Below are positions 38,384 through 51,687 of a stretch of 64,000 nt of DNA, piece after piece. The stretch's first letter is position 1, and every line of letters begins with the position of its first letter. Source of the stretch: Polyangiaceae bacterium (GTDB lineage: Bacteria > Myxococcota_A > Polyangia > Polyangiales > Polyangiaceae); the NCBI GenBank assembly GCA_015075635.1, contig JABTUA010000001.1, positions 2,480,001 through 2,544,000 on the forward strand, written 5' to 3'. Made by a program: the position numbers and the translations under genes. The notes below the pieces were generated by a model. It worked only from the letters and a program-made list of their open reading frames with translations, was not told where the DNA came from and made no database searches.

Positions 38384-38402
38384 ACGCGAGACGATCCCGC
38401 GT

Positions 38403-39827
38403 TTACCCGAGCGGTGTTGCGACTAGGTCCAGCATCGAGAGATCGATGCGCTTCACCAGGGCGAGCCCCATGCTCGAAGCGCCGATCTTCTGCTCGCCGA
38501 GGTAGACGGCGGTGTCCGTCAGGCTCCAGGTGTCCTGGTCGAAGTAGCTGCCTGGCGTGGGCTCGATGCGCCAAGCCTTCCAGGTCGAAAGCTGCACCAG
38601 CACGAGCGAGTTGGTCTTGGAGAACGCGCCCGCGTCGTCCGGCTTGTAGAGCACAGTGCCCGCGTATCCGCCCCAAGTGCGAACCGCCCAATTGGCTCCG
38701 TAGTCGAGCGTCGGGCTCACACTCGGCGGAAATGCGATGGTGTCTTTTGAGCGAGGCGCCCTCCAAAACCTCAGGTCCCCGAAGAGCTTGCACGCACTGG
38801 CCGCCAGTCCGACGATGTCCGTCGGGCTCACCCCCACCCAACAGGTGTCGGTGGGCACGGACTCGATGAGCGTGCGCACCCCCTTGCCGTCCGGCGACCA
38901 ACCGCGGATGCGCTCGCTAGATGCGTTCGGGTAGTCGGTCCAGACTGCGAGGTCGCCCTGGCCCCCGCCGAGCTGGCTGTGCGAGTTGCTCTCCAGCAAC
39001 GTCCAAACGTTCTTGGCGACGTCGAGCAGCGCGAAAACGGCGCCCTTTCCGGTCTTGATGCGGATCGGCGTCGAGGAGTCCATGGTGAACTCCATGCGGC
39101 CCTGTGGCAGGCCGCTGAGCGGAGGGGTGGCCCAGCGCCATGCCTTCTCGTCCGGGAGCCAGGTGAATGGCAGCTCCTGCGAGTTGCCCGCCACCAGGTT
39201 CGAGAATGCATCATCGCGTGCATTCCCGAACACGCATGTCGCATACCCGGGAGCCTTGGTCACTTGCCGTAGGACGGCAGCAATCGTCGCGCCGTTCGAC
39301 AGACTCACGATCCGCCGCGGGATGAACCAGTGGGACTCGGTCTCGACCCCCACCTCAATCTGGAGAAACGCAACCGGCCCCTCGGGCAGGAGTGGGGTGC
39401 TGAGCGTCGGGTAGCTCACCTTGCCGAACCCGGCGGTCACGTCCATCTGCGCGCAACCGGGTCCGCAAGCCTCCCATGTGAGCGAGGGGAACTTCAGCAG
39501 CGCGGAGACCCCTTCGAACACCGCGCACTTCGGAGCCCATGCCCCATTGCCCGGCGCCGGCTTCCAGATAATCGGATCCGCAAGCCAGGCGTGCTCTGCT
39601 GGCAGGCCGGAATCGGACAAGCTGACCTCGAACGGCGCGTCGGCCGGCGCATCCTTGGCATCGACGGGAGCGTGCTTCGCATCGTCCGCTGCGCCATCAC
39701 CGCCACCGGTTCCACCACCGTCCCATGGGTGCCGATACTCTTCGTCGCCACCCCTCGCGCAGGCGCCAAAGGACCACGCGATACCGGCTGCGACCACCAC
39801 CGAGAGGACGACGATGCGGGACCTCAC
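38403..39827 (-). CDS. Lipoprotein, probable beta-propeller, accessory
   Basis: 474 residues. GTG 39827 overlaps the stop of the upstream gene (GTGA) and gives a signal peptide with lipobox FGAC; an earlier in-frame GTG at 39848 also exists. A Gly/Asp/Ala linker leads to a long beta-rich region with repeated W-x-P / W-R-x blades, suggesting a propeller. No enzyme motif found. Slightly less GC-rich than core genes. Co-transcribed with the trypsin-like gene. Confidence 0.62.
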   Translation of the reverse strand: MRSRIVVLSVVVAAGIAWSFGACARGGDEEYRHPWDGGGTGGGDGAADDAKHAPVDAKDAPADAPFEVSLSDSGLPAEHAWLADPIIWKPAPGNGAWAPKCAVFEGVSALLKFPSLTWEACGPGCAQMDVTAGFGKVSYPTLSTPLLPEGPVAFLQIEVGVETESHWFIPRRIVSLSNGATIAAVLRQVTKAPGYATCVFGNARDDAFSNLVAGNSQELPFTWLPDEKAWRWATPPLSGLPQGRMEFTMDSSTPIRIKTGKGAVFALLDVAKNVWTLLESNSHSQLGGGQGDLAVWTDYPNASSERIRGWSPDGKGVRTLIESVPTDTCWVGVSPTDIVGLAASACKLFGDLRFWRAPRSKDTIAFPPSVSPTLDYGANWAVRTWGGYAGTVLYKPDDAGAFSKTNSLVLVQLSTWKAWRIEPTPGSYFDQDTWSLTDTAVYLGEQKIGASSMGLALVKRIDLSMLDLVATPLG

Positions 39828-41668
39828 AGGGCTCCGATCGGTGGGCACCAGCCGAAGAGACCGCTGGTCACCGTGACGTACTCGACCGACCCGTTCTTGC
39901 TCACCGCAACGATCGGATCGCGGTTGCCCATGGTCGGCTCGCCGACCAGCCTGCCTTGCCTGGTGTGGACACCGGTGAGCGAAATGCTGCTGTCACCCAC
40001 GCTGAAACGCCAGATGCGCAGCGTCTTCTTGGCCCCGCCATACACCAGTAGCCCTTGATCCGACCACTGGATCCACAAACGGTCGTGGAGCTTCAAGTAC
40101 GGAAGCTCGAGGAGGATCTTGCTCGCGCCGCCATGGACGTCGATGGAGAGGAGCCGCACGCGGTCGAGCTTCGAAGCGCCCAACCGGTCGTCGTCCAGAT
40201 CGAGCACGAACAACCGGTGGCGTTCCTGGTCCCACGCGGTGCTGAGCACGCGGGTGGACGGGCGCTCCTTTAGGTTCGGGGCGACGGAGGACCAGGTCCC
40301 GGAAGCGAGATCGTAGCGCAGCACGCTCCGCGCCGGCGCTCCGGTGATTGAATCCACGCCGCCGGCCACGTACACGGCTTCTTCCACCCCGCTCAGGACC
40401 GCCCCGAAAGCCCGGCGCGCGCGAACGCTCGGCGCGGGTTCGGAAGCGGCGCCCAGCTGCTCGGCAGGTCCGCCGCGCCGTTCCAGGCTCAAGCCGGAGG
40501 CGCCCCGGACCACCGTGGCGACGCGCGCGTCGGTGAGGTCACGCGGAAACACCACCGCTTGAACCGCTCCGCGACCGCTCAGCCGGCGGACCCTCTCGCT
40601 CGGTTCGGCGGGTGCGAGCCACATGAGGCTCGAGTCGGAGATCAGACTCCGAACGTCCGCCGCCAATGACGTCGTGATGTCGATTCCGGCGCTGGGCAGC
40701 GTCCGGGCGAGGATGTTCCCCGCGACCATCTGGATCAGCGTGGGCTGCACCAACTCGTTTCCGAAGTCGAAGAGAGCCGGGTCCTTCAGGTAGAGATCCG
40801 GGTTCACCCAAGTGAGGCACGGCAGCGACGGGCAACCCGCGTCGTCCGAGCCGCCGATGGGGAGCAAGGGCTTGATGGCCAGGGCCGGGGTGGTCACGAG
40901 CTCGAAGGCGTCGCGCAGGTCGCCCGCGAGGTCGCGGCCACCCACTATCGGGCCGGCGGTCGTGGAGAAGAAGGCCCCATGAGTGGAGCACGACGTCAGC
41001 GCGGCAGTGCAAACGCCGTGTCCTTCCACCGCGCCCGCGGACAAGTCCTGGCGCCACGCCCAGAAGCGCTCGAAGTCCAGCGCTACGCCTCGCGAGAACG
41101 TCACGGGCGAGGTGAATCCCGAGCCCGAGAGGATGTTGGTTCCGGTCGCCGTGGTCATGCGCGGCTCGTTCCAACGGGGGGCACTCTCGGGATTCGACCA
41201 GGTGCACTGCTTGCCGTCTCCCACGCACTCGAGGAGAGAGAGCGGCTCGTCTGAAGCGTCGTCGAAACACGTGCAATGACGATAGCCGATCGCTTGGCTC
41301 GTGTTGAACGCCCCGTCCGCATCCGTTTTTTGAGGGAATGAGAGCGTCACCGAACCCTGCGGAACCACCTGGCCGCTCACACCCGGCTGGTCGACTTGGC
41401 AGAGGCAATGCGCCGCAGTCAGAATTCGGTCACGCGCGACGAGCGTGCCGGAACACACGCTCTGCTTGTTGATTCCCAGGAAGGCGACCGTCGACACGAT
41501 GCCCGACGTGGCCGTCATGTCGGGGTAAACGCCAGCGCCGTAGAGTGCGTCCTGTGAACGCGCTGAGTGCGGCGGCGCCCCGGCCACATCACAACCTCCG
41601 AGCGCTATTGGCTTTGTCGCAAAACCCGCGCCATGTCTCGATTTCTCGGGCAGATAAGCTCTGCACAT
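39824..41668 (-). CDS. Trypsin-fold/Kelch-like protein, probably truncated at its 5' end
   Basis: 614 residues from ATG 41668. Residues about 55-95 match the N-terminal half of a trypsin domain (CSGTLVARDRILTAAHC, catalytic His), but no GDSGG serine motif is present, so proteolysis is doubtful. The C-terminal half (VYVAGGVDSITGAPARSVLRYDLASGTWS) is Kelch/propeller-like. The lipobox-like ALGGC (Cys26) lacks a hydrophobic stretch before it, unlike every other lipoprotein here; the original signal peptide seems to have been replaced at about 41620-41640, where a lower-GC island begins. Possibly not exported now. Confidence 0.65.
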   Translation of the reverse strand: MCRAYLPEKSRHGAGFATKPIALGGCDVAGAPPHSARSQDALYGAGVYPDMTATSGIVSTVAFLGINKQSVCSGTLVARDRILTAAHCLCQVDQPGVSGQVVPQGSVTLSFPQKTDADGAFNTSQAIGYRHCTCFDDASDEPLSLLECVGDGKQCTWSNPESAPRWNEPRMTTATGTNILSGSGFTSPVTFSRGVALDFERFWAWRQDLSAGAVEGHGVCTAALTSCSTHGAFFSTTAGPIVGGRDLAGDLRDAFELVTTPALAIKPLLPIGGSDDAGCPSLPCLTWVNPDLYLKDPALFDFGNELVQPTLIQMVAGNILARTLPSAGIDITTSLAADVRSLISDSSLMWLAPAEPSERVRRLSGRGAVQAVVFPRDLTDARVATVVRGASGLSLERRGGPAEQLGAASEPAPSVRARRAFGAVLSGVEEAVYVAGGVDSITGAPARSVLRYDLASGTWSSVAPNLKERPSTRVLSTAWDQERHRLFVLDLDDDRLGASKLDRVRLLSIDVHGGASKILLELPYLKLHDRLWIQWSDQGLLVYGGAKKTLRIWRFSVGDSSISLTGVHTRQGRLVGEPTMGNRDPIVAVSKNGSVEYVTVTSGLFGWCPPIGAL

Positions 41669-41671
41669 AAA

Positions 41672-41690
41672 ACATCGTGCTTGACGATGT
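41672..41690. promoter_or_regulatory. Inverted repeat upstream of small island gene
   Basis: ACATCG (41672-41677) and CGATGT (41685-41690) are perfect complements around a 7-bp centre, 19 bp before the ATG at 41710. TTGACG at 41681-41686 inside it could be a -35 box, with a weak -10 near 41704. The 6-7-6 layout recurs at 46981-46999. Confidence 0.45.
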
Positions 41691-41709
41691 CTTCGGCATG
41701 GGTTAGTCC

Positions 41710-42174
41710 ATGCCCGTGCCCCTTATCACGCTCAAGGACGGAACCCAGGTTTCCCTTACTGTCACCGAGTTGGCCGAATACAACGCTCTTTTATCCAGCG
41801 CAGGCAAACCAGCAAGAAAACAGCGTCGTCGGGAAACTCTGCCTGGTCAGGATTCCGAACCCGATAGTAGATCGCCAGTTGAAATGTTCTTCTCATTTAT
41901 ATCTGGTGACCAAGACAAGAAAAGGCGGCAGCGAAAAATCCTTTGCATCGTTTTTGGCCGCGGTGAAAAAGGTATCACGCTCGAAGAACTGAGCATCGCA
42001 ATTGGTGATGGCGGAGGTAATGCGGGTCGCAACAAAACCTCCGGGACAATTGCTGGCATTACCAAGAACGCCAAGAAGTCGCGGCTCGATGTTTACGACG
42101 TGATCTTCAAGGATCGCGACGATATCTACCGAGCAGGAAAAGTCCTTCAGGAGAACAAACCACCGGAACCGTGA
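41710..42174 (+). CDS. Small hypothetical protein, island gene
   Basis: 154 residues, clearly lower in GC than the flanks. The N-terminus MPVPLITLKDGTQVSLT resembles short beta modules found in small phage or island proteins. The middle is Lys/Arg-rich (KKRRQRK), and GITLEELSIAIGDGGGNAGRNKTSGTIAGITKNAKKSRLDVY looks like a winged-helix segment. A DNA-binding role is plausible, not shown. No signal peptide. First gene inside the island. Confidence 0.55.
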   Translation: MPVPLITLKDGTQVSLTVTELAEYNALLSSAGKPARKQRRRETLPGQDSEPDSRSPVEMFFSFISGDQDKKRRQRKILCIVFGRGEKGITLEELSIAIGDGGGNAGRNKTSGTIAGITKNAKKSRLDVYDVIFKDRDDIYRAGKVLQENKPPEP

Positions 42175-42395
42175 TTGTGAGTTCCAGATAAGTTTTCGCC
42201 CCCAGCAGCCTGTGAGAAAAGAGCTTTTCACGCCTCAGGCAGCTCGGGAGTAGTCTATTTCCGAGATGGAAGGCGTGCAAGCTCTTTTTTCCGGCATGGA
42301 GAAAAGAGCATGGATATCGCCCGATTACATCATGCGCGCTTCGTCGCTCCGCTGCTGGACAAGCTCAGACGGTGGCACTTTGCCCGCGCCCTCGC
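42175..42395. other. Island spacer, no gene seen
   Basis: About 220 bp between convergent island genes. It holds an A/T-rich hairpin-like stretch around 42210-42232 (AAAAG ... CTTTT flanked by GTG/CAC) that could terminate the gene at 41710. No other coding sequence was supported. Confidence 0.4.
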
Positions 42396-42569
42396 TCATT
42401 TTGCACGTGTTTTTTTCCGGGGCTTGCCCTGAAGCGGCTTGTTCCAGTACGGGCTCTTGCACTTCGGGCAGACCATCGGCAGGTCTTTTCCGTAGGTCTT
42501 TCCGGACCTTGGAAGCCACTGGTGGCCACACCTCTCGCACCGGTAGCCGTCGAGCTTGACCAGGGCCAT
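42396..42569 (-). CDS. 57-residue zinc-ribbon protein
   Basis: ATG at 42569 to TGA at 42396. Two CxxC knuckles, Cys11/Cys14 (YRCERCGHQW) and Cys34/Cys37 (VCPKCKSPYWN), with a basic tail (KPRKKTRAK). This is the layout of short free-standing zinc ribbons common next to mobile or toxin-antitoxin-like genes, where they may bind DNA or RNA. It is below usual length cut-offs and easily missed. It is transcribed away from the operon at 42655, 85 bp apart. Confidence 0.8.
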   Translation of the reverse strand: MALVKLDGYRCERCGHQWLPRSGKTYGKDLPMVCPKCKSPYWNKPLQGKPRKKTRAK

Positions 42570-42618
42570 GGCTCACTCATCGCCGAGTCTGTCATGGGCG
42601 TCAAGTGTTTAGCTTACC

Positions 42619-42645
42619 TTGCAGGGTATTCCTTTTAGGTATACA
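42619..42645 (+). promoter_or_regulatory. Candidate sigma-70-like promoter
   Basis: TTGCAG (42619-42624) and TATACA (42640-42645) are spaced 15 bp apart, a little short of the optimum, just before the gene at 42655. AT-rich boxes are rare in this genome. The -10 lies inside the palindrome described next. Confidence 0.45.
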
Positions 42646-42653
42646 CTAAAAGG
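42631..42653. promoter_or_regulatory. Palindromic operator over promoter and ribosome site
   Basis: CCTTTTAG (42631-42638) and CTAAAAGG (42646-42653) are perfect 8-bp complements around GTATACA. The right arm ends one base before the ATG at 42655 and carries its AAAGG ribosome site; the centre carries the -10 box. A repressor bound here would block transcription of the whole 42655-45979 operon, and in RNA the arms could pair and hide the start. The core GTATAC is shared with the palindrome at 47013-47026. Confidence 0.7.
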
Positions 42654-42654
42654 T

Positions 42655-42939
42655 ATGGCCAACCTGCGACAAGACGACGTGCTTTCCGGCGACGCGATGA
42701 CGCCGCTCCAGGCCGCCCTCCGTCTTTCCCTGATCCATGTCGAGATGCTCCAGCTCGCGGCGACGCTTGAGCCAGAGCAAGCCAGGGTCGTTCGCTACTC
42801 GGCCAACGTGCTCGCGCTGCTGAAGCGGTTGCCAATGGGCAGCACCGCAGCCGACGTGCTTGGAGTGAGTACTTCGTCCTGCGACTCGCGCGTGGTGCGC
42901 CTCTTCGAGCGTGAGCCGGGGCCAAAGGGTGTGTCATGA
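42655..42939 (+). CDS. Small helical protein, probable regulator, coupled to transposase
   Basis: 94 residues. All helical; the C-terminal GSTAADVLGVSTSSCDSRVVRLFERE has the look of a helix-turn-helix. Its stop overlaps the ATG of the transposase gene (ATGA), so the two are translationally coupled. The strong palindrome directly before its start suggests self-repression, but the DNA-binding call is inference. No family recognised. Confidence 0.62.
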   Translation: MANLRQDDVLSGDAMTPLQAALRLSLIHVEMLQLAATLEPEQARVVRYSANVLALLKRLPMGSTAADVLGVSTSSCDSRVVRLFEREPGPKGVS

Positions 42940-44156
42940 GCGCGGAGCGCCGACTCGCCAAGGCTCACCTGATCGCGAACAGGGGTGGGCTACTCGATGT
43001 GGGTGAAGGCGTGTGGATCGTCCCATCGCAATCGAAGGCGAAGGGCGGCTACATGGTCAACACGGCGCAAGGCACCTGTACCTGCGCTGACTTCGAAGAT
43101 TGGGGTGCCGACTGCAAGCACATCCTTGCGGTCCGTCTTTTCCAGTCTCTCCAGCATCACGTTCAACCCCATGCAAGCACCGACATCATGCGGCCGAGCT
43201 ATCCACAAGATTGGCCGGCGTACAACGAGGCCCAGACCAAGGAGAAGGAATACTTCCACATCCTGCTCCGCGATCTCTGCGCCGGTGTCGTCAGCCCGCC
43301 ACAGAACCGAGGCCGCCCTCGCCTCGGTCTCGGCGACGTGGTGCACGCGGCGACGACCAAGGTGTACACGACCATGAGCGGCCGGCGCGCGAGTACGGAT
43401 GTTCGCGAGTGCCAGAAGAACGGGTTCATCGACGACGCTCCGCACCACAACTCGATCAGCCACTATCTGACGATGCCGGCGCTGACGCCGGTGCTCACCG
43501 CGCTCGTCAGGGAGACCGCGCTGCCATTGGTGTCCGTGGAGTCGCAGTTCGCTATCGACTCCACCGGATTCGGCACCAGCGTTTACGACCGCTGGTACGG
43601 CCATGACTACGGGGAGGAGCGCCGCAAGCGCTGGCTGAAGGCACACGCCATGGTCGGCACGATCACGAACGTGGTCACGGCCATACGGGTCACGATGGGC
43701 AGCGTCGGTGATTCAACGCAACTGGCGGGCCTGGTGGCCAGCACCGCAGAGAATTTCGATATGCACGAAGTCTCCGCTGACAAGGGCTACTTGAGCGAGC
43801 CCAATCTTGTGGCAATTGAAGCTCACGGCGCTGCACCGTTCATCCCGTTCAAGAAGAACGCTGTGTCGAACCTGCCGCGAACGGAGACGTGGAGGAAGCT
43901 ATGGCACTTGTTCTGGTACAAGCGCGACGAATTCCTGAAGCACTACCACCGCCGTTCGAACGTGGAGGCCACCTTCGGAATGATCAAGAAGAAGTTCGGT
44001 GGCTCGCTGCGTTCGAAGAAGTTTCAGAGCCAAGTCAACGAAGTTCTGTGCAAGTTCCTCTGCCACAACATCGTCGTCTTGATCCACGAGATGCACGAGC
44101 TTGGGATACATCCTGAGTTCTGGCAGCCGAGCGAAGGTGGCCGTGTCCTTCACTGA
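42936..44156 (+). CDS. SWIM zinc finger-DDE transposase fusion
   Basis: 406 residues. Residues 40-66 contain CTCADFEDWGADCKH (Cys48, Cys50, Cys60, His62), a SWIM-type CxCxnCxH zinc finger that in other proteins binds DNA or partners. A DDE domain follows with AIDSTGFG (Asp208), SADKGYLS (Asp282) and RSNVEATFGMIKKKFG (Glu344), intact for the IS4/IS5-like DDE fold. No terminal inverted repeats or target duplication were found around it, and it sits inside a coupled operon (ATGA upstream; 14-bp overlap downstream). It may be a domesticated transposase or part of a larger element. Confidence 0.85.
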   Translation: MSAERRLAKAHLIANRGGLLDVGEGVWIVPSQSKAKGGYMVNTAQGTCTCADFEDWGADCKHILAVRLFQSLQHHVQPHASTDIMRPSYPQDWPAYNEAQTKEKEYFHILLRDLCAGVVSPPQNRGRPRLGLGDVVHAATTKVYTTMSGRRASTDVRECQKNGFIDDAPHHNSISHYLTMPALTPVLTALVRETALPLVSVESQFAIDSTGFGTSVYDRWYGHDYGEERRKRWLKAHAMVGTITNVVTAIRVTMGSVGDSTQLAGLVASTAENFDMHEVSADKGYLSEPNLVAIEAHGAAPFIPFKKNAVSNLPRTETWRKLWHLFWYKRDEFLKHYHRRSNVEATFGMIKKKFGGSLRSKKFQSQVNEVLCKFLCHNIVVLIHEMHELGIHPEFWQPSEGGRVLH

Positions 44157-45705
44157 CGCGGCGACCAGCGCGGGGGCCGGCGCACGACCGAGGCACCCGA
44201 TCTTTGACAAGCTCCAGCTCTCCAAGTCCCGCTTCACGGCGGGACTCCAGTGCCACAAGCGGCTCTGGCTGGAAGTCCACGAGCCCGACGCGCCCGAGTT
44301 GACGCGCACGCCGGCCGAGCAGGCCATCCTCGATCGCGGGATTCGCGTCGGCGAGGTGGCGCGGGGCCACGTTCCCGGCGGCGTCTTGATCGACGCGCCG
44401 CATCGCGATCGAGCGCGCCGCGTGCGCGAAACCAAGCGCGCCGTCAAGTCCGGCGCTCAGGTGCTCTACGAGGCCGCCTTCTTTGAGGGCGGAATCTTCG
44501 TCGCGACGGACATTCTGGAGCACGACGGCGGAGGCTGGACGCTCGCAGAGGTCAAGTCCACCACGAAGGTGAAGGCTGCGCACATTCCCGACGCCGCCGT
44601 CCAACGCTACGTGCTTGAACGCGCCGGCCTGTGTGTGAGGCGCGTCGAGATCATGCACTTGAACCGCGAGTGCCAATTCCCGAACCTGTCGAACCTCTTC
44701 GTGCGAAGTGACGTGACCCACGAGACTGAACTGGCTCTGCCTTCGATCCCTGGAGAGGCCAAACGCCAGCTCAAGGTGCTTCACGGGCCCTGCCCGAACG
44801 TGCCCGCGGGTGAGCACTGCCACGAACCGTACGAGTGCCCCTTCCTGCCCCGCTGCGCGCCGCCGCTGCCGAACCATCACGTGAGCACGCTCCACCGAAT
44901 TCGCCGAACCAAAGTGGCGGAGTTGGTGCAGCAAGGGTGCCACACAATCTTTGACCTCCCCGGCGGCCTCGTGCTCAGCGCCGTGACCGAGCGTCAGCGC
45001 AAGGCCGTGGTGGCCGGCAGGATGATCGTGGAGCCGGGGCTCGGGGCGGCGCTCGCCGCGCTCGAGCCCCCGGTCGCCTACCTCGACTTCGAAACCGTCG
45101 CGCTGGCCATTCCGGTGTGGAAAGGCTGCCGACCGTACGATGCCGTGCCGGTGCAGTTCAGCGTCCACTTCGAGGACGGCCAACACCACGAGTGGATCGC
45201 TGATGGGCCCGCCGACCCGCGAGAGAAACTCGCGGCGGCCCTGGTACACGCCGTGCGCGGCGCGAAGAGGATCGCGGCGTACAACTCGCCGTTCGAGCGG
45301 CGCTGCATCGAGCATCTGCGAGACAACCTTCCGCGCACCGCCAAGGCCCTCGAAGGCGTAATCGCGCGGCTGGTGGACGTGCTGCCGATTGTCCGGGACC
45401 ACGTGTACCATCCGGACTTCGGTGGAAGCTTCTCCCTCAAGCGCGTCTTTCCGGCACTGCTCGGACGAGATGGCTACGCCGAACTCGAAATTGCGGATGG
45501 CGGTACAGCGAGCGTAGAACTAGAGCGGCTGATGTTCGACCTTGAGCTGACCGAAAGCAGCCGCAGCAAAGCGAAGGCGTCCCTCTTGGAGTATTGCTCG
45601 CTGGATGCGATGCCCCTTGTTGACCTCGTGGAGTGCCTCCGCGCCCTGGGCGGTCCCGTGGGCATTCCGCCGCATATCGATCATGGGCAACAAGAGAAAG
45701 AGTAG
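44143..45705 (+). CDS. DUF2779 protein: Cas4-like nuclease fused to DEDD exonuclease
   Basis: 520 residues from GTG 44143, with AAGGTGG just upstream. N-terminal PD-(D/E)xK part: Asp123 (ATDIL), Glu136-x-Lys138 (LAEVKS), then QRY (154-156). Cys37 (LQCHKRLW) with Cys226, Cys232 and Cys238 (CHEPYECPFLPRC) can hold a 4Fe-4S cluster, as in Cas4/AddB. C-terminal RNase-H-fold exonuclease: Asp315-Phe-Glu317 (YLDFET), Asn381/Glu385 (YNSPFE) and YCSLD near the end, a DEDDy-like set. All catalytic residues seem present. It overlaps the transposase gene by 14 bp. Processing of DNA ends is the natural role. Confidence 0.83.
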   Translation: MSFTDAATSAGAGARPRHPIFDKLQLSKSRFTAGLQCHKRLWLEVHEPDAPELTRTPAEQAILDRGIRVGEVARGHVPGGVLIDAPHRDRARRVRETKRAVKSGAQVLYEAAFFEGGIFVATDILEHDGGGWTLAEVKSTTKVKAAHIPDAAVQRYVLERAGLCVRRVEIMHLNRECQFPNLSNLFVRSDVTHETELALPSIPGEAKRQLKVLHGPCPNVPAGEHCHEPYECPFLPRCAPPLPNHHVSTLHRIRRTKVAELVQQGCHTIFDLPGGLVLSAVTERQRKAVVAGRMIVEPGLGAALAALEPPVAYLDFETVALAIPVWKGCRPYDAVPVQFSVHFEDGQHHEWIADGPADPREKLAAALVHAVRGAKRIAAYNSPFERRCIEHLRDNLPRTAKALEGVIARLVDVLPIVRDHVYHPDFGGSFSLKRVFPALLGRDGYAELEIADGGTASVELERLMFDLELTESSRSKAKASLLEYCSLDAMPLVDLVECLRALGGPVGIPPHIDHGQQEKE

Positions 45706-45979
45706 GGCGAACTCGGCGGAGTTGACGGACTCAGCGGTACTGGCCGCTCTCACAAGCATGCTTCGCGTCCGCATTCCCACGATGGGCGGGGCTCTGGGGG
45801 AACCAGAACTTGCGGAGCATCTCAGTACCCAGCTCCACCTGGACGAAGGCACTGGAGAGCGAGCGTACTGGCATGCTGGCTACGTATCGGCGATGCGGGA
45901 CATGCTGCGGATGATCGAGCATCGGGTGGACGAGTATCCCATGACGGATGGCGACACTCACCCGTCGTCTTCGTCTTGA
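45683..45979 (+). CDS. Small hypothetical protein ending the nuclease operon
   Basis: 98 residues from ATG 45683, overlapping the nuclease gene by 23 bp. Basic N-terminus (GNKRKSRANS), helical middle (RAYWHAGYVSAMRDMLRMIEHRVDEYP) and Ser/Asp tail. No family or motif recognised. Overlap on the same strand supports co-expression with the nuclease; its last 22 bp overlap the convergent GIY-YIG remnant. Confidence 0.58.
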   Translation: MGNKRKSRANSAELTDSAVLAALTSMLRVRIPTMGGALGEPELAEHLSTQLHLDEGTGERAYWHAGYVSAMRDMLRMIEHRVDEYPMTDGDTHPSSSS

Positions 45980-46348
45980 TCTCCTGAAAAACAGGCGTCG
46001 CTAACGGGGCACCTATACTTCTTCCCAGCCGGACGAGGCGGGTGCGCATCATTGTCTGGGGGCTCGAAGTCATGAAAGATCCTACACTCGCGCTCGTAGG
46101 ATTCTTTCACCGGGCTGAAGTAGTCGAACTTGAAGTGGGTAGACTTCAGTTTTGACTTGTCGTTGTCGTGCTGGTGAAGACGGCCGCGGACGCCCTCGGC
46201 ATGATTATCCGAACGGCCAACGTATCTCACGATGAACTTGCCATCGTCATCTGCCAAGAACGTACACGCCGATGCAAGTGCCCTCTTTCACGTGCAAGTC
46301 GATCTCGGCTCTCGGGAATGGCCCGCGTTTGAGGCCAGTTGATGGCAT
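45958..46348 (-). pseudogene. GIY-YIG nuclease gene with one-base frameshift
   Basis: The frame from ATG 46348 reads a short N-terminus, then EGTCIGVYVL (the GIY motif), and hits TGA at about 46250. Shifting by one base at 46258 continues directly into ADDDGKFIVRYVGRSD (YIG motif), the catalytic Arg in GRLHQHD, Glu in YERECRIFHDF and Asn in PPDND, with a Cys-containing tail. Joined, this is a complete GIY-YIG domain of about 129 residues. An extra base, a sequencing error or programmed frameshifting would each explain it. Follows the first GIY-YIG gene by 8 bp. Confidence 0.75.
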
Positions 46349-46356
46349 GGTCCGCA

Positions 46357-46638
46357 CTACCTTTCGCCGCAATCAGGATCGAACTCATCGCGCAGCTGGT
46401 GTTCGACCACGCGCCGCCCGGCCTTCTTCTTCCCCGGCGTCCACACCACCTGAACGCGGACGGCCCCAACGGCGTTCTCACTCCAGCACGCACGTCGCTC
46501 GTGGGTCCTGATACGCTGGCCGACCTTGGCGGACTCGCCCACGTCGAGCACGTTGCCTTCCTCGTCGTGGACGATGTACACGCCGGATCGCTTCGGGATG
46601 TACCGGTTTGGCAAAGAGAAGTTTCGTTTCTTTGGCAT
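46357..46638 (-). CDS. GIY-YIG family endonuclease-like protein
   Basis: 93 residues. RSGVYIVHDEEG supplies the GIY part, NVLDVGES the YIG-like part, RIRTHE the catalytic Arg, and VVEHQLRDEF the metal-binding Glu. This is a minimal stand-alone GIY-YIG domain, as in UvrC-N or phage and restriction nucleases; no DNA-binding domain is fused. It follows the XRE gene by 59 bp and precedes the frameshifted paralog, forming a regulator-nuclease-nuclease cassette. Confidence 0.75.
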   Translation of the reverse strand: MPKKRNFSLPNRYIPKRSGVYIVHDEEGNVLDVGESAKVGQRIRTHERRACWSENAVGAVRVQVVWTPGKKKAGRRVVEHQLRDEFDPDCGER

Positions 46639-46697
46639 GGTGGCCTCGCCACGACAAAATGCTGACGCGCGATAGCGACCCAGTCAAGGTGGCAGCC

Positions 46698-46976
46698 TCA
46701 CCGACGACGCGATGATCCGCGTGCTGGGGGCCGACCGCGGGGAACGGCGCGTGACACAGGATCATCCAGCAAGTCCCTGGTGAGCACGCCGAGCAGCCGC
46801 GCGAGCCGCACCATCGTCTTGAGCGTCAGGTTCTGCTTGCCGCGCTCCATCGCCTGAAAGTTCCGTAACGCGATGCCGAGCTTCTCCGCGGCCTGCTCCT
46901 GCGTCCACCCGCGCCGCATTCGGAACTCGCGGATCTTGCGCCCCACGTCGCGGATGACCTGGCTTGGCTTCTCCAC
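46698..46976 (-). CDS. XRE-family transcriptional regulator
   Basis: 92 residues from GTG 46976. Residues about 8-65 form a helix-turn-helix: IREFRMRRGWTQEQAAEKLGIALRNFQAMERGKQNLTLKTMVRLARLLG. A basic Arg/Pro tail follows. Likely represses its own operon with the GIY-YIG genes; two inverted repeats (46981-46999, 47013-47026) lie immediately upstream. May also act at 42631-42653, which shares the GTATAC core; that is a hypothesis. Confidence 0.85.
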   Translation of the reverse strand: MEKPSQVIRDVGRKIREFRMRRGWTQEQAAEKLGIALRNFQAMERGKQNLTLKTMVRLARLLGVLTRDLLDDPVSRAVPRGRPPARGSSRRR

Positions 46977-46980
46977 GCCG

Positions 46981-46999
46981 CCACGGTCGTTTCCCGTGG
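46981..46999. promoter_or_regulatory. Inverted repeat CCACGG / CCGTGG before XRE gene
   Basis: Perfect 6-bp arms around a 7-bp centre, starting 5 bp before the GTG start of the XRE gene. A position covering the ribosome site suits an autoregulatory operator. Confidence 0.45.
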
Positions 47000-47012
47000 T
47001 CCCTCGAAACAG

Positions 47013-47026
47013 GATGGTATACCATC
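47013..47026. promoter_or_regulatory. 14-bp perfect palindrome in divergent promoter
   Basis: GATGGTATACCATC lies between the XRE gene (left) and the lipoprotein gene at 47054 (right), 28 bp from the latter. It is the most AT-rich spot in the divergent region, so it likely overlaps a promoter. A repressor here could control both directions. Confidence 0.65.
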
Positions 47027-47053
47027 TCCTTCGATCCGGAGGAGGCGTAAGCC

Positions 47054-48340
47054 GTGCTCACCCGAGTACCCTGCCTGGTTCTTTCCGCCACCATCGTCTG
47101 CGCCGCTGCCTGCGCGCCCTACGAGACGCAAACCGTCCAGAACAACCCGCGCCCCGATCCATCACGCCAGGCCCAGGCGCAGCATGAGCAGAAGCCCGGC
47201 GACCTGACCGGCGAGGCCAAGGTGTCGGGAAACTCCGTCAACGTGCTCGTCCAGAAGACCACGCTGTGCCGCGACGTGACCACAACACCCATGGTCGCGG
47301 ACACCACCGCCAAGAAGAAGCTCACGAGCGTCGGGCGGGGCACGCAGTACTTGCTCGTCGGGGGGGCGGTCGTGCTCGCAGGCGTCGGCGCGTACATGGT
47401 TGGCGGCCCGTGCAAGAAGACGGACACCGACGCAGCCGGCAAAGATGTGGAGCGCGACTGCACGTCCCAAGAGGCCAAGGATCAGAAGAACGGCGGCGTC
47501 GGACTAGTCGTCGTCGGCGGTGCGGCTGGGGCGATGTTCGTTGTCAACGTGTTCCGCAGCCAGGACACGCAAGAAGTGGGGCCGACGCAGCCCTGGCGCA
47601 CGGAGACACCCTGGAAGCAGTGCGAGACAGCGGCAGCAGCGAAAGTCACCGTGACGCTTTCGCTCCGAGGCGCGCAGCGGACGGCGCTGACGGAGCAAGA
47701 CGGCATCGCACGCTTCGATCTTGCCGGTGAGGAACCGCCACGCGGGATCGACGAGACTCCGATCACTGACGCGCGCGTAGGCAACGTGAAAGTGGCAGAC
47801 GTTGATCTGTCCCGCCTGGATGTGTTCCCCCAGTGGAAGGAGCAGCTGCGCTCGGAACGCGCCGCGCGCGAGGAGAAAACTCGGCTCGAAGAGGAGAAGC
47901 GCGCCGCAGAAGAAGCGGCGCTCCGCGAGAAGCTGAAGGAGCAAGCCGACCAGTGCAAGGCCGGTGACGCGCAAGCCTGTTACGCTCTGGGGCAGCGGTC
48001 GAGCAACGCGGCCTGGTTCAAGAAAGCCTGCGAGCTGAACTACCAGGCAGGCTGCATCGCCTACCAGAAGGCGCTGGACGACAAGCGCGAGGCAGAAGCT
48101 CGTCGCCGAGCACGGGAAGCACAGAAGGCATTGTCCGACGCGGCGAGCGACCCCTGGCTGCGGGCGCGACGGAGCGTGCTCGTGCAGTGTCTGCTCGACA
48201 ACGGCGGAACCGCGATGGCCGAGGGCCTCTGCAAGCAGCTGCTGGAAACGAAGCTCAAGCCGCTGGTGGAGCGCAGCTGCATCGAGCTGTGCAAGGGCGA
48301 CAAGATGGGCGACTGCGACCGGCGATGCACTCGGCGCTGA
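47054..48340 (+). CDS. Lipoprotein with internal membrane segments and Sel1-like tail
   Basis: 428 residues from GTG 47054 with GGAGGAGG just upstream. Lipobox AAAC, then two hydrophobic glycine-rich segments (about 98-116 and 150-168), a charged coiled coil (about 270-300, RLEEEKRAAEEAALREKLKEQ) and Cys-paired helices (CKAGDAQACYALGQ, ACELNYQAGC) resembling Sel1 repeats. Domain mix is unusual for a lipoprotein; topology is uncertain. Function unknown. Confidence 0.65.
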   Translation: MLTRVPCLVLSATIVCAAACAPYETQTVQNNPRPDPSRQAQAQHEQKPGDLTGEAKVSGNSVNVLVQKTTLCRDVTTTPMVADTTAKKKLTSVGRGTQYLLVGGAVVLAGVGAYMVGGPCKKTDTDAAGKDVERDCTSQEAKDQKNGGVGLVVVGGAAGAMFVVNVFRSQDTQEVGPTQPWRTETPWKQCETAAAAKVTVTLSLRGAQRTALTEQDGIARFDLAGEEPPRGIDETPITDARVGNVKVADVDLSRLDVFPQWKEQLRSERAAREEKTRLEEEKRAAEEAALREKLKEQADQCKAGDAQACYALGQRSSNAAWFKKACELNYQAGCIAYQKALDDKREAEARRRAREAQKALSDAASDPWLRARRSVLVQCLLDNGGTAMAEGLCKQLLETKLKPLVERSCIELCKGDKMGDCDRRCTRR

Positions 48341-48380
48341 CGGGCGGGGACTTCGGGCTGGCGGAGAGAAAAGGCGGGGG

Positions 48381-48848
48381 TCAGAATCCGGGCTGACACG
48401 AGCCCGCCGCCGTACAGCCCTTTTTGATCAAGCAGCAAATTAGTCCTGGCGGGCAACCTCCAGGGATTGCAAAGCAGTCGCATGTCTTGCTTGCCCCCGA
48501 AGTGAGGCATCCGCCGTTGCAAGGCGCGCCTCCGCAGCAGGTAGTAACGGCTCCGGGCCCCGGCTCTGGCGCGCACCATTGGTCTTCGCCAGCGTCGAGG
48601 TATGGGTTCGGGCTCATGTAGTCGATGCTCGAATCCGGAATGATGATTCCTCCTCCACCGCCACCCCAGCCGCTGGAGTCTGGAGACGAGCCACCGGACC
48701 CGGCTGTTCCGCCGTTTGCGCTGCCGCCTGTCCCCGCGCCAGTCCCGCCGGAGCTACTTGTGTGATCGTCGTTCGACGATTCTCCGCCGCACATGACCAG
48801 CAACACGAGCGTGGCAACGCCGGTGCTTACGAACTTCAGTTCCCGCAT
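48381..48848 (-). CDS. Cys-rich lipoprotein with Gly-rich linker
   Basis: 155 residues from ATG 48848. Signal peptide with lipobox-like VMC, Gly/Ser linker with a run of glycines, then about 12 cysteines in the last 65 residues (TTCCGGAPCNGGCL, CCLIKKGC). It resembles its upstream neighbour in layout: signal, Gly linker, small disulfide domain. Overlaps that neighbour by 13 bp. Function unknown. Confidence 0.65.
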   Translation of the reverse strand: MRELKFVSTGVATLVLLVMCGGESSNDDHTSSSGGTGAGTGGSANGGTAGSGGSSPDSSGWGGGGGGIIIPDSSIDYMSPNPYLDAGEDQWCAPEPGPGAVTTCCGGAPCNGGCLTSGASKTCDCFAIPGGCPPGLICCLIKKGCTAAGSCQPGF

Positions 48849-49246
48849 AGCTTCTCGCTCGCGCAGACGCTGCCGCAACAAACCGTGGGAACCCAGCAGC
48901 CACCGCTGATCGCGCCGCAGTAGCACTCGCCGGTCTTGGGATTGCACTGCCCACGACAGAGCTTGCCATTGCAGCACGCGTGAATGCCCTTCACAGGGTA
49001 GTCGCAAGACTCCGGATCGATCACCTGGGCGTCGCCATCAACGTCCGCTTGCGCATCTGCATCGGCGTGACCGGCGTCCAGCACGCCGCCCATTCCGCCC
49101 GATTGTGCGCTCCCTTCCATCGCGTCACTGACTACTCCGCCAGCGCCACCGTGGCCCATGCCGCCTCCGCCGAGAGAGGAGTCAGTCGTCGAGTGCCCGG
49201 CGCACGCTGCCAAGATTCCGGCGATAGCTGTCAAGGCCGCTCTCAC
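48836..49246 (-). CDS. Small Cys-rich lipoprotein
   Basis: 136 residues. GTG 49246 overlaps the stop of the sialidase-like gene (GTGA). Lipobox LAAC, Gly/Asp linker, then a compact domain with CCNGKLCRGQCNPKTGECYC and CCGSVC, a knottin-like cysteine spacing. Middle gene of a three-lipoprotein operon. Function unknown. Confidence 0.65.
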   Translation of the reverse strand: MRAALTAIAGILAACAGHSTTDSSLGGGGMGHGGAGGVVSDAMEGSAQSGGMGGVLDAGHADADAQADVDGDAQVIDPESCDYPVKGIHACCNGKLCRGQCNPKTGECYCGAISGGCWVPTVCCGSVCASEKLCGN

Positions 49247-50808
49247 GGGAAGACCGTGGCATTCACATGTACGGACTCGGCGGTGAATGCCTTCTGGTCG
49301 GCCGGGTTGCAGCCGTCATACGATTGCGTGAACGCCGTTACGAACAGCGCACGACCAAACGTGTCGCGATCAACGGCTTGTAGGTCATCGTAGTCGCCCC
49401 AATAGAACGTCGTCGTGGTGGGACACGCCTCTCGGCTGGGCACGGCGGTCAGTGGGGTCAGCGGCGCGGTAGGCGAATCGAGCACGGCGCGAAGGACTGC
49501 GACGGTTCCGCCTGGATCAAACTGCGTCGTCTGGTACTGTATGCCCCAACGTTCCCCGAAGCCCGGTTCGTTGGGTTCAACACGGATGAGAGGGTTGAAT
49601 CTATCGGCGACCGGCCCGGGCGGAGACGTGCCCCACGCGTAGGCGACCTGGCACCCGGTCAACTCTGGCGTGCATGAAACGATGCGAAGCGACAGGTTCC
49701 CGTTCTCGGGATTTCGGGTGTTGAAAAAGAATCGCACCTCAGTCTCGCCGACATCGAACGAGAACTGGTTGGCCGTCCGCATCGGCCCATTCGCGGTCGT
49801 CACCGTCGGTCCGATCGGGACATTGAGCGATCCCGGCATGATGTTGAACGTCGGTGGTGCCCACACGCCGTCCTCGAAATAGGTTGCAGCCAAGGCCGAA
49901 GTGTCCACGTCGAAACTGTATTGTTGGGCGATGTAGACGCGTCCGCGGTACTGGTCGAAGCGAACCCTCGGATGCATCACGAAGTTCTGGCTGTCCGGGA
50001 ACGGCAGGTCCAGCAATGCGAACTGCGGAGAGCTGATCGTGGATCGCCACACGTGAGGTGTGCCAGCAGGCACGTCGTGCACCGCGTAGAAGACCTGCCC
50101 TGTCGCGGTGCCGGTCATGCTCCCGCCGTCGTAAAAGTCGCCCTTGCAGTACTGGTACTCGCCGAAGCCTGAGCAGTCGTCGTCGCTCAGGCAACTCTGG
50201 CCATTACTGTCGCCGACGCCGCCGGGGCACAGAATGCACTTGTGGCAGGTCGGGTGATTGAAACACTCAGCTTGCCCAAAACTGAGCCCGCCATCACCCG
50301 AGCGAGCTACGCAGGCTCCATCCACTTCACCGTTGACGAAGCCGCTCAACGTTCCGCCGCTCGCAAGGAACGGCCGGAACGAGATGGCTAGGTAGCCCAT
50401 GAACACGTTGGAATTTTCGGGCTCGCTTGTCTGCGTAGTGATCGCCGGGTCGCTCCATATTGCCCACCAGCCTTGCTCCAGAGGCGGTGCCACCTTCCCG
50501 CCGTACGTGAAGCTTTGGCCCTGGTCGAGCGAGTACGACCAACCCATGAGGCTTGCGCCAGGGTGGATCGTTCGCGTCGAACTCGTGTACTCGATGTAGC
50601 CGTTCGCCTCGTTATCCGTGTCGTCGTTGTAGGCCACAACCACGGACGGCGCGAAGTCCAGGGTGCTCGAAACCGCGATTGCCGTCTCGGACTGCGGATC
50701 ATCGAGCGTCGTGTCCGGGCCGCCCGTGACCCGCACGCCTTGGTCCTGGCAACCAAATGCTGCAAGCACGCCGATCGCTGGAAACGCCCGAAGAAGTGTC
50801 CGCCCCAT
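49243..50808 (-). CDS. Lipoprotein, sialidase/BNR-type propeller fold
   Basis: 521 residues from ATG 50808. Lipobox AFGC, then a long beta-rich domain with repeated Ser/Asp-x-Asp-x-Gly-x-Thr/Ser-Phe elements (SLDQGQSFTYGG, SGDGGLSFGQA), the Asp-box signature of BNR propellers. A Cys-rich insert (CHKCILCPGG, CLSDDDCSG) interrupts it. Lacks the catalytic Arg triad that I could recognise, so sugar cleavage is not claimed. First gene of the operon ending at 48381. Confidence 0.66.
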   Translation of the reverse strand: MGRTLLRAFPAIGVLAAFGCQDQGVRVTGGPDTTLDDPQSETAIAVSSTLDFAPSVVVAYNDDTDNEANGYIEYTSSTRTIHPGASLMGWSYSLDQGQSFTYGGKVAPPLEQGWWAIWSDPAITTQTSEPENSNVFMGYLAISFRPFLASGGTLSGFVNGEVDGACVARSGDGGLSFGQAECFNHPTCHKCILCPGGVGDSNGQSCLSDDDCSGFGEYQYCKGDFYDGGSMTGTATGQVFYAVHDVPAGTPHVWRSTISSPQFALLDLPFPDSQNFVMHPRVRFDQYRGRVYIAQQYSFDVDTSALAATYFEDGVWAPPTFNIMPGSLNVPIGPTVTTANGPMRTANQFSFDVGETEVRFFFNTRNPENGNLSLRIVSCTPELTGCQVAYAWGTSPPGPVADRFNPLIRVEPNEPGFGERWGIQYQTTQFDPGGTVAVLRAVLDSPTAPLTPLTAVPSREACPTTTTFYWGDYDDLQAVDRDTFGRALFVTAFTQSYDGCNPADQKAFTAESVHVNATVFP

Positions 50809-51178
50809 GGGGAAAGAATCGCAGCAGCCCCTATGTCGGTCAAGATGTGGAACCGCAACTCACGCTGCGTCAGCTTTCGCGCCCGATGCCTGAGCAACTA
50901 CCGGGGCCAGCGCTCGCGGCTCGCCAACGGAAATTCGGGACGGCCCGGGTCATGGTGAACGCGAGCGCTCCCGACATCGTGGCTGACGGATCCGGTGGCA
51001 CACTCGCTGAGCGGCATTTTTTCGACCCGATGTACCGCGCCGCGTAATTCCTGGTCAGGATTTGGGTTTTTGGGGCAGGCGCGCCTTTTAGGGCAAAGCC
51101 AGCGCTATTGCCCCCCTGCAACTAGCAGACCAACCGATCGCAACGGCTTCATCGCTTCCCTCCTGGCCCGACGGGATT
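50809..51178. other. Gene-free stretch at right edge of accessory region
   Basis: 370 bp with open frames on both strands but none with a credible start, ribosome site or protein-like composition. A G-rich run (51063-51074) and GGCGCGCCTTTT near 51080 are the only notable features. It probably contains the promoter of the lipoprotein operon ending at 48381 and decayed sequence. Confidence 0.4.
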
Positions 51179-51580
51179 CTAGCAACGCCGCTCGCCATCG
51201 TCCATGTGGCCCGCGTTGCGGGCCATTGCGGGCTCTCGAGCTCTGCGGCCCAGTCGCCGCGGCGTCCCCCGGAAGGAGCGCACTCCGTGGAGCGCCGGCA
51301 TGAAATCGATCTGTAGCCCCGCGTCGTCGTCCACCACGCGGTAGAGCTTCGACACCGGGTAGTAGGGTCGAAACACCACTGCACCAATGGCCTTGGCGAA
51401 CCGCTTGAGCTTGGTCCGATTGAGCGGAGTGTCCCGGAACATGAAGTCGAAATCCAAGGTGGTGACCGGCGCACCGTGGAGCGCCGCAGCCGCGTTGCCC
51501 ACGAGCACGGCGTCCAGCCGCACCGCGGCGAGAGCCTCTGCGATCCGCTCGAGCGTCGGCCGGGCATTCACGCTCGACAT
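51179..51580 (-). pseudogene. Nucleotidyltransferase-like gene, probably degenerate
   Basis: 133 residues from ATG 51580. DAVLVGNAAAALHGAPVTTLDFDFM fits the antitoxin-like/MNT nucleotidyltransferase fold, with two metal Asp in DFDF, and LQIDFMPALHGVRSF continues the fold. After residue 105 the sequence becomes Arg-rich and unlike the family (GTPRRLGRRAREPAM), and the usual helical end (ASLADIIASK-type) is missing, suggesting a frameshift or decay. A toxin-antitoxin origin is possible; no partner is seen. Confidence 0.55.
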
Positions 51581-51687
51581 GGTGCCCCCGGGGCGCAGGC
51601 CTTTCAATCCGGTGCCCATCCGTGTTTCCGCCTGGTCCGTCTGACCCCCCTTGCCTCCCGAGCCCGGGGTGGTCGAAGCTCCGAGCG

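What the first reader, a model, noticed from the sequence alone, without database searches (positions are those of the whole stretch)
42631..46976. Coupled SWIM-DDE transposase and Cas4-like/DEDD nuclease operon with its own operator, regulator and GIY-YIG partners
Seen: four genes in one overlapping unit (94-aa helical protein, transposase with SWIM finger and intact D208/D282/E344, DUF2779 nuclease with PD-(D/E)xK, four-cysteine and DEDD motifs, 98-aa protein). An 8-bp palindrome sits over its promoter, and an XRE gene with two GIY-YIG genes lies opposite. Known: Cas4/AddB-like nucleases process DNA ends; SWIM fingers bind DNA. Inference: a transposase paired with an end-processing nuclease could be a domesticated recombination or defence module, or a novel mobile element. 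No inverted ends were found.
Basis: partly seen in the sequence, partly recalled or inferred. Interest (0 to 1): 0.85.

Follow-up and report, generated by a model that had tools for sequence, protein, structure and literature searches.

The report
Cargo transposon carrying a DNA-degrading enzyme

Summary
The genes are real, but the unit is larger than described. The SWIM-DDE transposase is the enzyme of a 9,491-bp transposon at 41610-51100. Its inverted ends start GGCTTTG (18 of 23 bases match) and are flanked by a perfect 9-bp duplication, AGCGCTATT.
The same end pattern and duplication delimit 38 related elements (2.1-9.3 kb) in bacteria, DPANN archaea and IMG/VR contigs, against 0 of 26 control loci. 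All exceed the roughly 1.3 kb that a transposase alone would need. Thirteen of the 38 carry DNA methyltransferase or restriction genes; flanks of the same loci carry none (13/188 versus 0/375 genes).
The nuclease is a known fusion (PD-(D/E)xK plus DEDDy exonuclease, DUF2779). It does not co-occur with the transposase anywhere else searched, so it is best read as cargo, perhaps for defence, not as a dedicated transposition partner. The two small proteins have no homologues found here.
The element is an IS5-like transporter IS of a SWIM-finger group that I found no description of: a new variant of a known kind.

The parts
41601..41609 (.). Target-site duplication, left copy (AGCGCTATT)
   Evidence: Identical to 51101-51109 and flush with both ends
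41610..41632 (+). Left terminal inverted repeat GGCTTTGTCGCAAAACCCGCGCC
   Evidence: 18/23 match to the right end; GGCTTTG occurs only at the two ends in 37-53 kb
41710..42174 (+). 154-aa protein of unknown function, passenger
   Evidence: ORF; no Pfam, NCBIfam or PADLOC match
42396..42569 (-). 57-aa zinc-ribbon protein, divergent from the transposase unit
   Evidence: Zn_ribbon_8 1.9e-05 (below cut-off); 40-60% identical to zinc-ribbon genes beside other SWIM-DDE genes
42628..42656 (.). 11-nt inverted repeat (7-nt spacer), possible operator between the divergent genes
42655..42939 (+). p94, orphan 94-aa protein overlapping the transposase start (ATGA)
   Evidence: No homologue in the loci fetched; not alignable to the small HTH proteins of other elements
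42936..44156 (+). SWIM-DDE transposase (IS5-like)
   Evidence: DDE_Tnp_1 3.5e-24, SWIM 0.0014; DDE and SWIM residues invariant; model pLDDT 84.7, best PDB hits integrases, also Tn5 transposase
44137..45705 (+). DUF2779 nuclease: Cas4/AddB-like PD-(D/E)xK with four Cys, plus DEDDy exonuclease
   Evidence: DUF2779 8.4e-32; motifs invariant in 14 aligned sequences; model pLDDT 89.4, PDB hits Cas4, EXO5, RecE, lambda exonuclease and B-family polymerase
45683..45979 (+). p98, orphan 98-aa protein
   Evidence: No homologue in the loci fetched, no family
45958..46257 (-). GIY-YIG-like remnant, probably frameshifted
   Evidence: GVYVL lies in another frame than FIVRYVGRS...ESYERE
46357..46638 (-). Small GIY-YIG-like protein
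   Evidence: GIY-YIG E 0.0041, below cut-off
46698..46976 (-). XRE-family regulator
   Evidence: HTH_31 2.3e-12
47054..48340 (+). 428-aa lipoprotein-like passenger
   Evidence: No match in 59 other family genomes; no Pfam
48836..49246 (-). 136-aa Cys-rich lipoprotein-like passenger
   Evidence: ORF; no Pfam
49243..50808 (-). 521-aa lipoprotein-like passenger
   Evidence: ORF; no Pfam
51078..51100 (-). Right terminal inverted repeat GGCTTTGCCCTAAAAGGCGCGCC
   Evidence: only copy in the genome within 3 mismatches
51101..51109 (.). Target-site duplication, right copy (AGCGCTATT)

Best explanation
A single-copy cargo transposon, 41610-51100. The SWIM-DDE protein most likely binds the GGCTTTG ends, cuts them with its DDE site and joins them to staggered target DNA, which leaves the 9-bp duplication. 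The genes between the ends travel as passengers. The zinc-ribbon protein and the inverted repeat beside it probably regulate transposase expression. The DUF2779 protein degrades DNA (PD-(D/E)xK plus 3'-5' exonuclease). It sits in the translationally coupled slot behind the transposase that holds a small HTH gene or a methyltransferase-Mrr fusion in other elements, so it is most likely cargo that benefits host or element, plausibly as restriction or defence. Shown from sequence: ends, duplication, relatives, cargo enrichment, motifs. Inferred: current activity, regulation, nuclease activity, defence role.
For: Ends and perfect 9-bp duplication. Thirty-eight homologous elements with the same end consensus (78 ends: G76 G78 C76 T72 T78 T78 G77 C76, then A70 A65 at positions 14-15) and 9-bp duplications, 0/26 control loci, and no hits at duplication lengths 6, 7, 11, 12 or 13. 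A conventional IS hit (L145) served as positive control for end finding. Invariant DDE and SWIM residues. Cargo enriched in methyltransferases, 13/188 versus 0/375 flank genes, Fisher 5e-7. Nuclease not linked to this transposase elsewhere. L113 carries a methyltransferase-Mrr gene in the same ATGA-coupled slot.
Against: The two ends of this copy match at only 18 of 23 bases, and the left end has T where 76 of 78 ends have C, so the copy may be weakened. I found no exact empty allele: congeners lack the whole 13.3-kb surrounding island. The nuclease is unique to this element in the sample, so its role rests on analogy. PADLOC does not recognise it as a defence gene (Cas4 0.013).
Confidence: 0.82

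Rival explanations
1. The nuclease is a working part of the transposition machinery: translated with the transposase, it trims or clears DNA ends or the donor gap, as Cas4 and DEDD nucleases do in CRISPR adaptation.
For: 20-nt overlap of the reading frames, and the only usable starts close to the conserved part (GTG at 44137 or 44143) lie inside the transposase gene; Cas4-like fold; one other element (L016) has a DEDD exonuclease (PF10108) two genes behind the transposase.
Against: No other transposase locus has this nuclease, and 22 of 24 host genomes lack the family. Relatives with intact ends and 9-bp duplications do without it.
Confidence: 0.15
2. The region is a defence or recombination module unrelated to transposition, with a domesticated transposase.
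For: Nuclease, XRE and GIY-YIG genes resemble defence parts; a single copy in the genome.
Against: Intact ends, perfect duplication and intact catalytic residues; no defence-system match.
Confidence: 0.05
3. Chance neighbourhood: the end-like sequences are coincidental and the genes accumulated independently in a hot spot.
For: The 13.3-kb island is absent from two congeners and has mixed, lower GC. A generic scan without the end motif gives two other chance pairs in the window.
Against: GGCTTTG occurs only twice in 16 kb, inverted, and both copies abut the same 9-mer; the motif was learned from independent elements.
Confidence: 0.03

Closest known systems
IS5 family of insertion sequences (IS903 group)
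   Different: Scores below the curated IS5 cut-off (128 versus 140 bits); extra N-terminal SWIM finger; passengers in every delimited member; 2-9.5 kb.
Transporter IS (tIS), IS elements with passenger genes
   Same: IS-type transposase and ends plus genes not needed for transposition; passengers can be regulators, methyltransferases or resistance genes (PMC11891212; PMC7986276).
   Different: Passengers appear to be the rule here, with marked enrichment in restriction-modification genes; the examples named in those papers are IS1595, IS1380, IS481 and IS6 family members.
DUF2779 / family F.17 RNase H-like exonucleases fused to DUF83
   Same: Same two-domain layout, described in PMC3985635.
   Different: Here inside a transposon and overlapping the transposase gene.
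Cas4 of CRISPR adaptation and casposons
   Same: PD-(D/E)xK fold with four cysteines; best PDB hit is Cas4-Cas1-Cas2.
   Different: No Cas1 gene recognised in the element; a DDE transposase in its place; sequence match to Cas4 is weak.

Membership tests
IS5-family transposon | DDE transposase matching an IS5 model above its cut-off | tested here: inconclusive
   NF033579 IS5_2 E 4.1e-37, 128.2 bits versus cut-off 140
IS5-family transposon | Intact DDE triad | tested here: met
   D208, D282, E344 invariant in 26 aligned sequences
IS5-family transposon | Terminal inverted repeats (GGCTTTG type) | tested here: met
   41610 and 51100; 38 relatives
IS5-family transposon | Fixed-length target duplication (9 bp for the IS903 group, from memory) | tested here: met
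   AGCGCTATT on both sides; 9 bp in 35 of the 38 relatives as scored
Transporter IS (tIS) | IS-type element with passenger genes not needed for transposition | tested here: met
   More than 8 kb beyond the transposase gene, with at least nine further genes; dispensability inferred from relatives that lack them
DUF2779 nuclease family | DUF2779 domain with DEDD residues and PD-(D/E)xK plus four Cys | tested here: met
Cas4 | Match to Cas4 models and linkage to cas1 | tested here: not met
   Cas_Cas4 0.28 and PADLOC Cas4 0.013, both weak; no cas1 among the element's proteins scanned
Known anti-phage defence system | Recognised system components | tested here: not met
   PADLOC gives only generic HTH and weak Cas4 and PDC-S14 hits
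Active transposon | Observed movement | not testable with these tools
   Needs a transposition assay

The most novel reading that the evidence does not exclude
SWIM-finger IS5-like elements are a transposon group specialised in spreading DNA-modification and DNA-cutting genes between bacteria, archaea and phages. In this member a Cas4/DEDD double nuclease is expressed in step with the transposase and acts as a new mobile restriction or defence gene, or protects the element.
Probability: 0.35. Interest if true: 0.78.

Novelty: new variant of a known kind. Interest (0 to 1): 0.6.

Why it matters
How restriction-modification and related defence genes move between distant hosts is an open question, and most work (to my knowledge) looks at integrases, plasmids and Tn7-like elements. 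Here a simple DDE transposase group with recognisable ends and a 9-bp duplication repeatedly carries such genes. The end motif gives a direct way to delimit these elements and list their cargo, including unknown proteins that may be new defence genes. It also shows that a scan close to the transposase misses the ends, so such elements may be under-annotated.

Tried and rejected
Ends within 600 bp of the transposase: none clear in the SWIM-DDE loci, although a conventional IS (L145) gave a clear hit. For a while this suggested a domesticated, end-less gene family; widening to 3 kb showed the real ends.

p94 as a diverged copy of the small HTH protein of other elements: profile comparison gave no support.

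Empty sites in phages: neighbours of L080, L083 and L075 gave no comparable empty contig.

First genome-contig scan with a single protein found nothing.

Literature: no paper found describing SWIM-finger IS5-like transposons; the library holds only open-licence papers, so absence is weak evidence.

Coupled four-gene module: rejected by co-occurrence.

Full report
What was checked. The window lies in a 9.47-Mb, 97.7% complete genome, where the transposase is single copy. The four overlapping genes are as described. The transposase has a DDE_Tnp_1 domain (3.5e-24) and a weak SWIM finger (0.0014, just under cut-off), but the SWIM ligands C48/C50/C60/H62 and D208/D282/E344 are invariant in 26 diverse sequences. 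Its predicted fold (pLDDT 84.7) matches retroviral integrases and, over more of its length, Tn5 transposase. The nuclease has invariant PD-(D/E)xK, four-cysteine and DEDD motifs; its model (pLDDT 89.4) matches Cas4, EXO5, RecE and B-family polymerase. This fusion is already described as family F.17 of the RNase H-like superfamily (PMC3985635).

Do the four genes belong together? No. In a 290-genome survey of the class, transposase homologues occur in 12 genomes and nuclease homologues in 20. Neither is found within several kb of the other except here. Among about 85 other transposase loci (genomes of the same class, IMG/VR contigs, other genomes; a few are duplicates of each other) none has the nuclease, and 22 of 24 transposase-bearing genomes have no DUF2779 at all. 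p94 and p98 have no homologue in the loci fetched.

What the transposase does travel with. A small DNA-binding protein is often encoded divergently just upstream, either a zinc ribbon or a ribbon-helix-helix protein, and a small HTH protein often follows in an ATGA overlap (zinc ribbon or RHH in 23 of 39 delimited elements including the window, HTH in 11). In L113 the slot holds an N6_N4 methyltransferase-Mrr fusion.

Finding the ends. Searches within 600 bp of the transposase found no clear ends in this family while detecting a conventional IS. Searches to 3 kb exposed a shared end, GGCTTTGC, in several loci. In the window GGCTTTG occurs only at 41610 (plus) and 51094-51100 (minus) within 37-53 kb, each flush with AGCGCTATT. 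The two 23-bp ends match at 18 positions. A scan for inverted pairs flanked by a 9-bp duplication then gave a best pair in 37 loci, 29 of them with GGCTTTG at both ends by my count. After filtering by a loose end motif, 38 elements of 2.1-9.3 kb remained (median 4.4 kb). Control loci gave 0 of 26, and duplication lengths of 6, 7, 11, 12 or 13 gave none. Positions 8, 14 and 15 of the end, which were not in the motif filter, are also strongly conserved. A generic scan of the window without the motif yields two other chance pairs, so the motif is what makes the case.

Insertion history. The 13.3-kb region 38384 to about 51648 is absent from both congeners searched, where the upstream transporter gene is followed directly by the 51688 gene. 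The transposon lies inside that island. Joining its flanks in silico gives one open frame that runs through the junction into the trypsin/kelch-like gene 39824-41518, consistent with insertion near the 5' end of that gene; the open frame upstream of the junction may be partly spurious.

Cargo of the group. Of 104 cargo proteins of 85 aa or more, Pfam finds N6_N4_Mtase (5), N6_Mtase (5), Eco57I (4), C5 methylase (2), HSDR_N (2), Mrr (2), BstXI restriction enzyme, Vsr, GHKL ATPase and several HTH regulators. Thirteen of 38 elements carry a methyltransferase-like gene. The flanks of the same loci have 0 of 375 by home-made profiles (13/188 versus 0/375, p = 5e-7). These profiles were built from the cargo itself, which favours cargo; a Pfam scan of 104 flank proteins also shows no methyltransferase family among the 25 of 60 families printed. 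Hosts include Myxococcota, Acidobacteriota, Eremiobacterota, Chloroflexota, Planctomycetota and DPANN archaea. Two IMG/VR contigs are supported as phage by tail genes, L079 and (weakly) L080, and L080 holds a fully delimited element.

Mechanism. DDE transposition at GGCTTTG ends with 9-bp staggered joining is the straightforward reading. The duplication and ends are shown; activity is not. The nuclease most likely rides as cargo. Its defence role is inferred from the company the family keeps, and the alternative that it aids transposition is kept at 0.15.

Novelty. IS elements with passengers, including methyltransferases, are known as transporter IS (PMC11891212; PMC7986276). What I did not find described is an IS5-like group with an N-terminal SWIM finger, passengers in every delimited member and strong enrichment in restriction-modification genes. 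The library searched is open-licence only and ISfinder was not available, so this may be catalogued there under names I could not check.

Noticed in passing
window 38384-51648: A 13.3-kb island between a metal ABC transporter permease gene and the 51688 gene is absent from two same-genus genomes, where the two genes are adjacent; GC is lower than the flanks, and no tRNA or end repeats were found.
   Followed up: partly
window 45958-46260 (minus): A GIY-YIG-like gene whose GIY stretch is in a different frame from the rest: frameshift, assembly error or recoding.
   Followed up: partly
L054, L055, L056 (own genome): Three further DUF2779 nuclease copies: two in duplicated segments sharing the same neighbours, one split between frames beside recC/recB/recD-like genes.
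   Followed up: no
L131-L135 (DPANN archaea): Homologous transposases that match from about residue 45-86 on; in L133 and L135 a zinc-ribbon-like N-terminus replaces the SWIM finger. L133 carries a C5 methyltransferase, Vsr and a GHKL ATPase as cargo.
   Followed up: partly
L122: Delimited element with a C5 methylase; one cargo protein of the whole set scanned (not traced to its element) matches BstXI restriction endonuclease at 7e-104.
   Followed up: partly
L015, L103, L137: Three elements carry P63C-domain proteins as cargo beside the transposase.
   Followed up: no
L105 and L106: Two contigs of one metagenome start inside a nearly identical transposase gene and diverge towards its 3' end, suggesting related elements with different cargo.
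   Followed up: partly
L016, L018 and window 46698-47054: Three elements share an XRE gene divergent from a lipoprotein-like gene.
   Followed up: no
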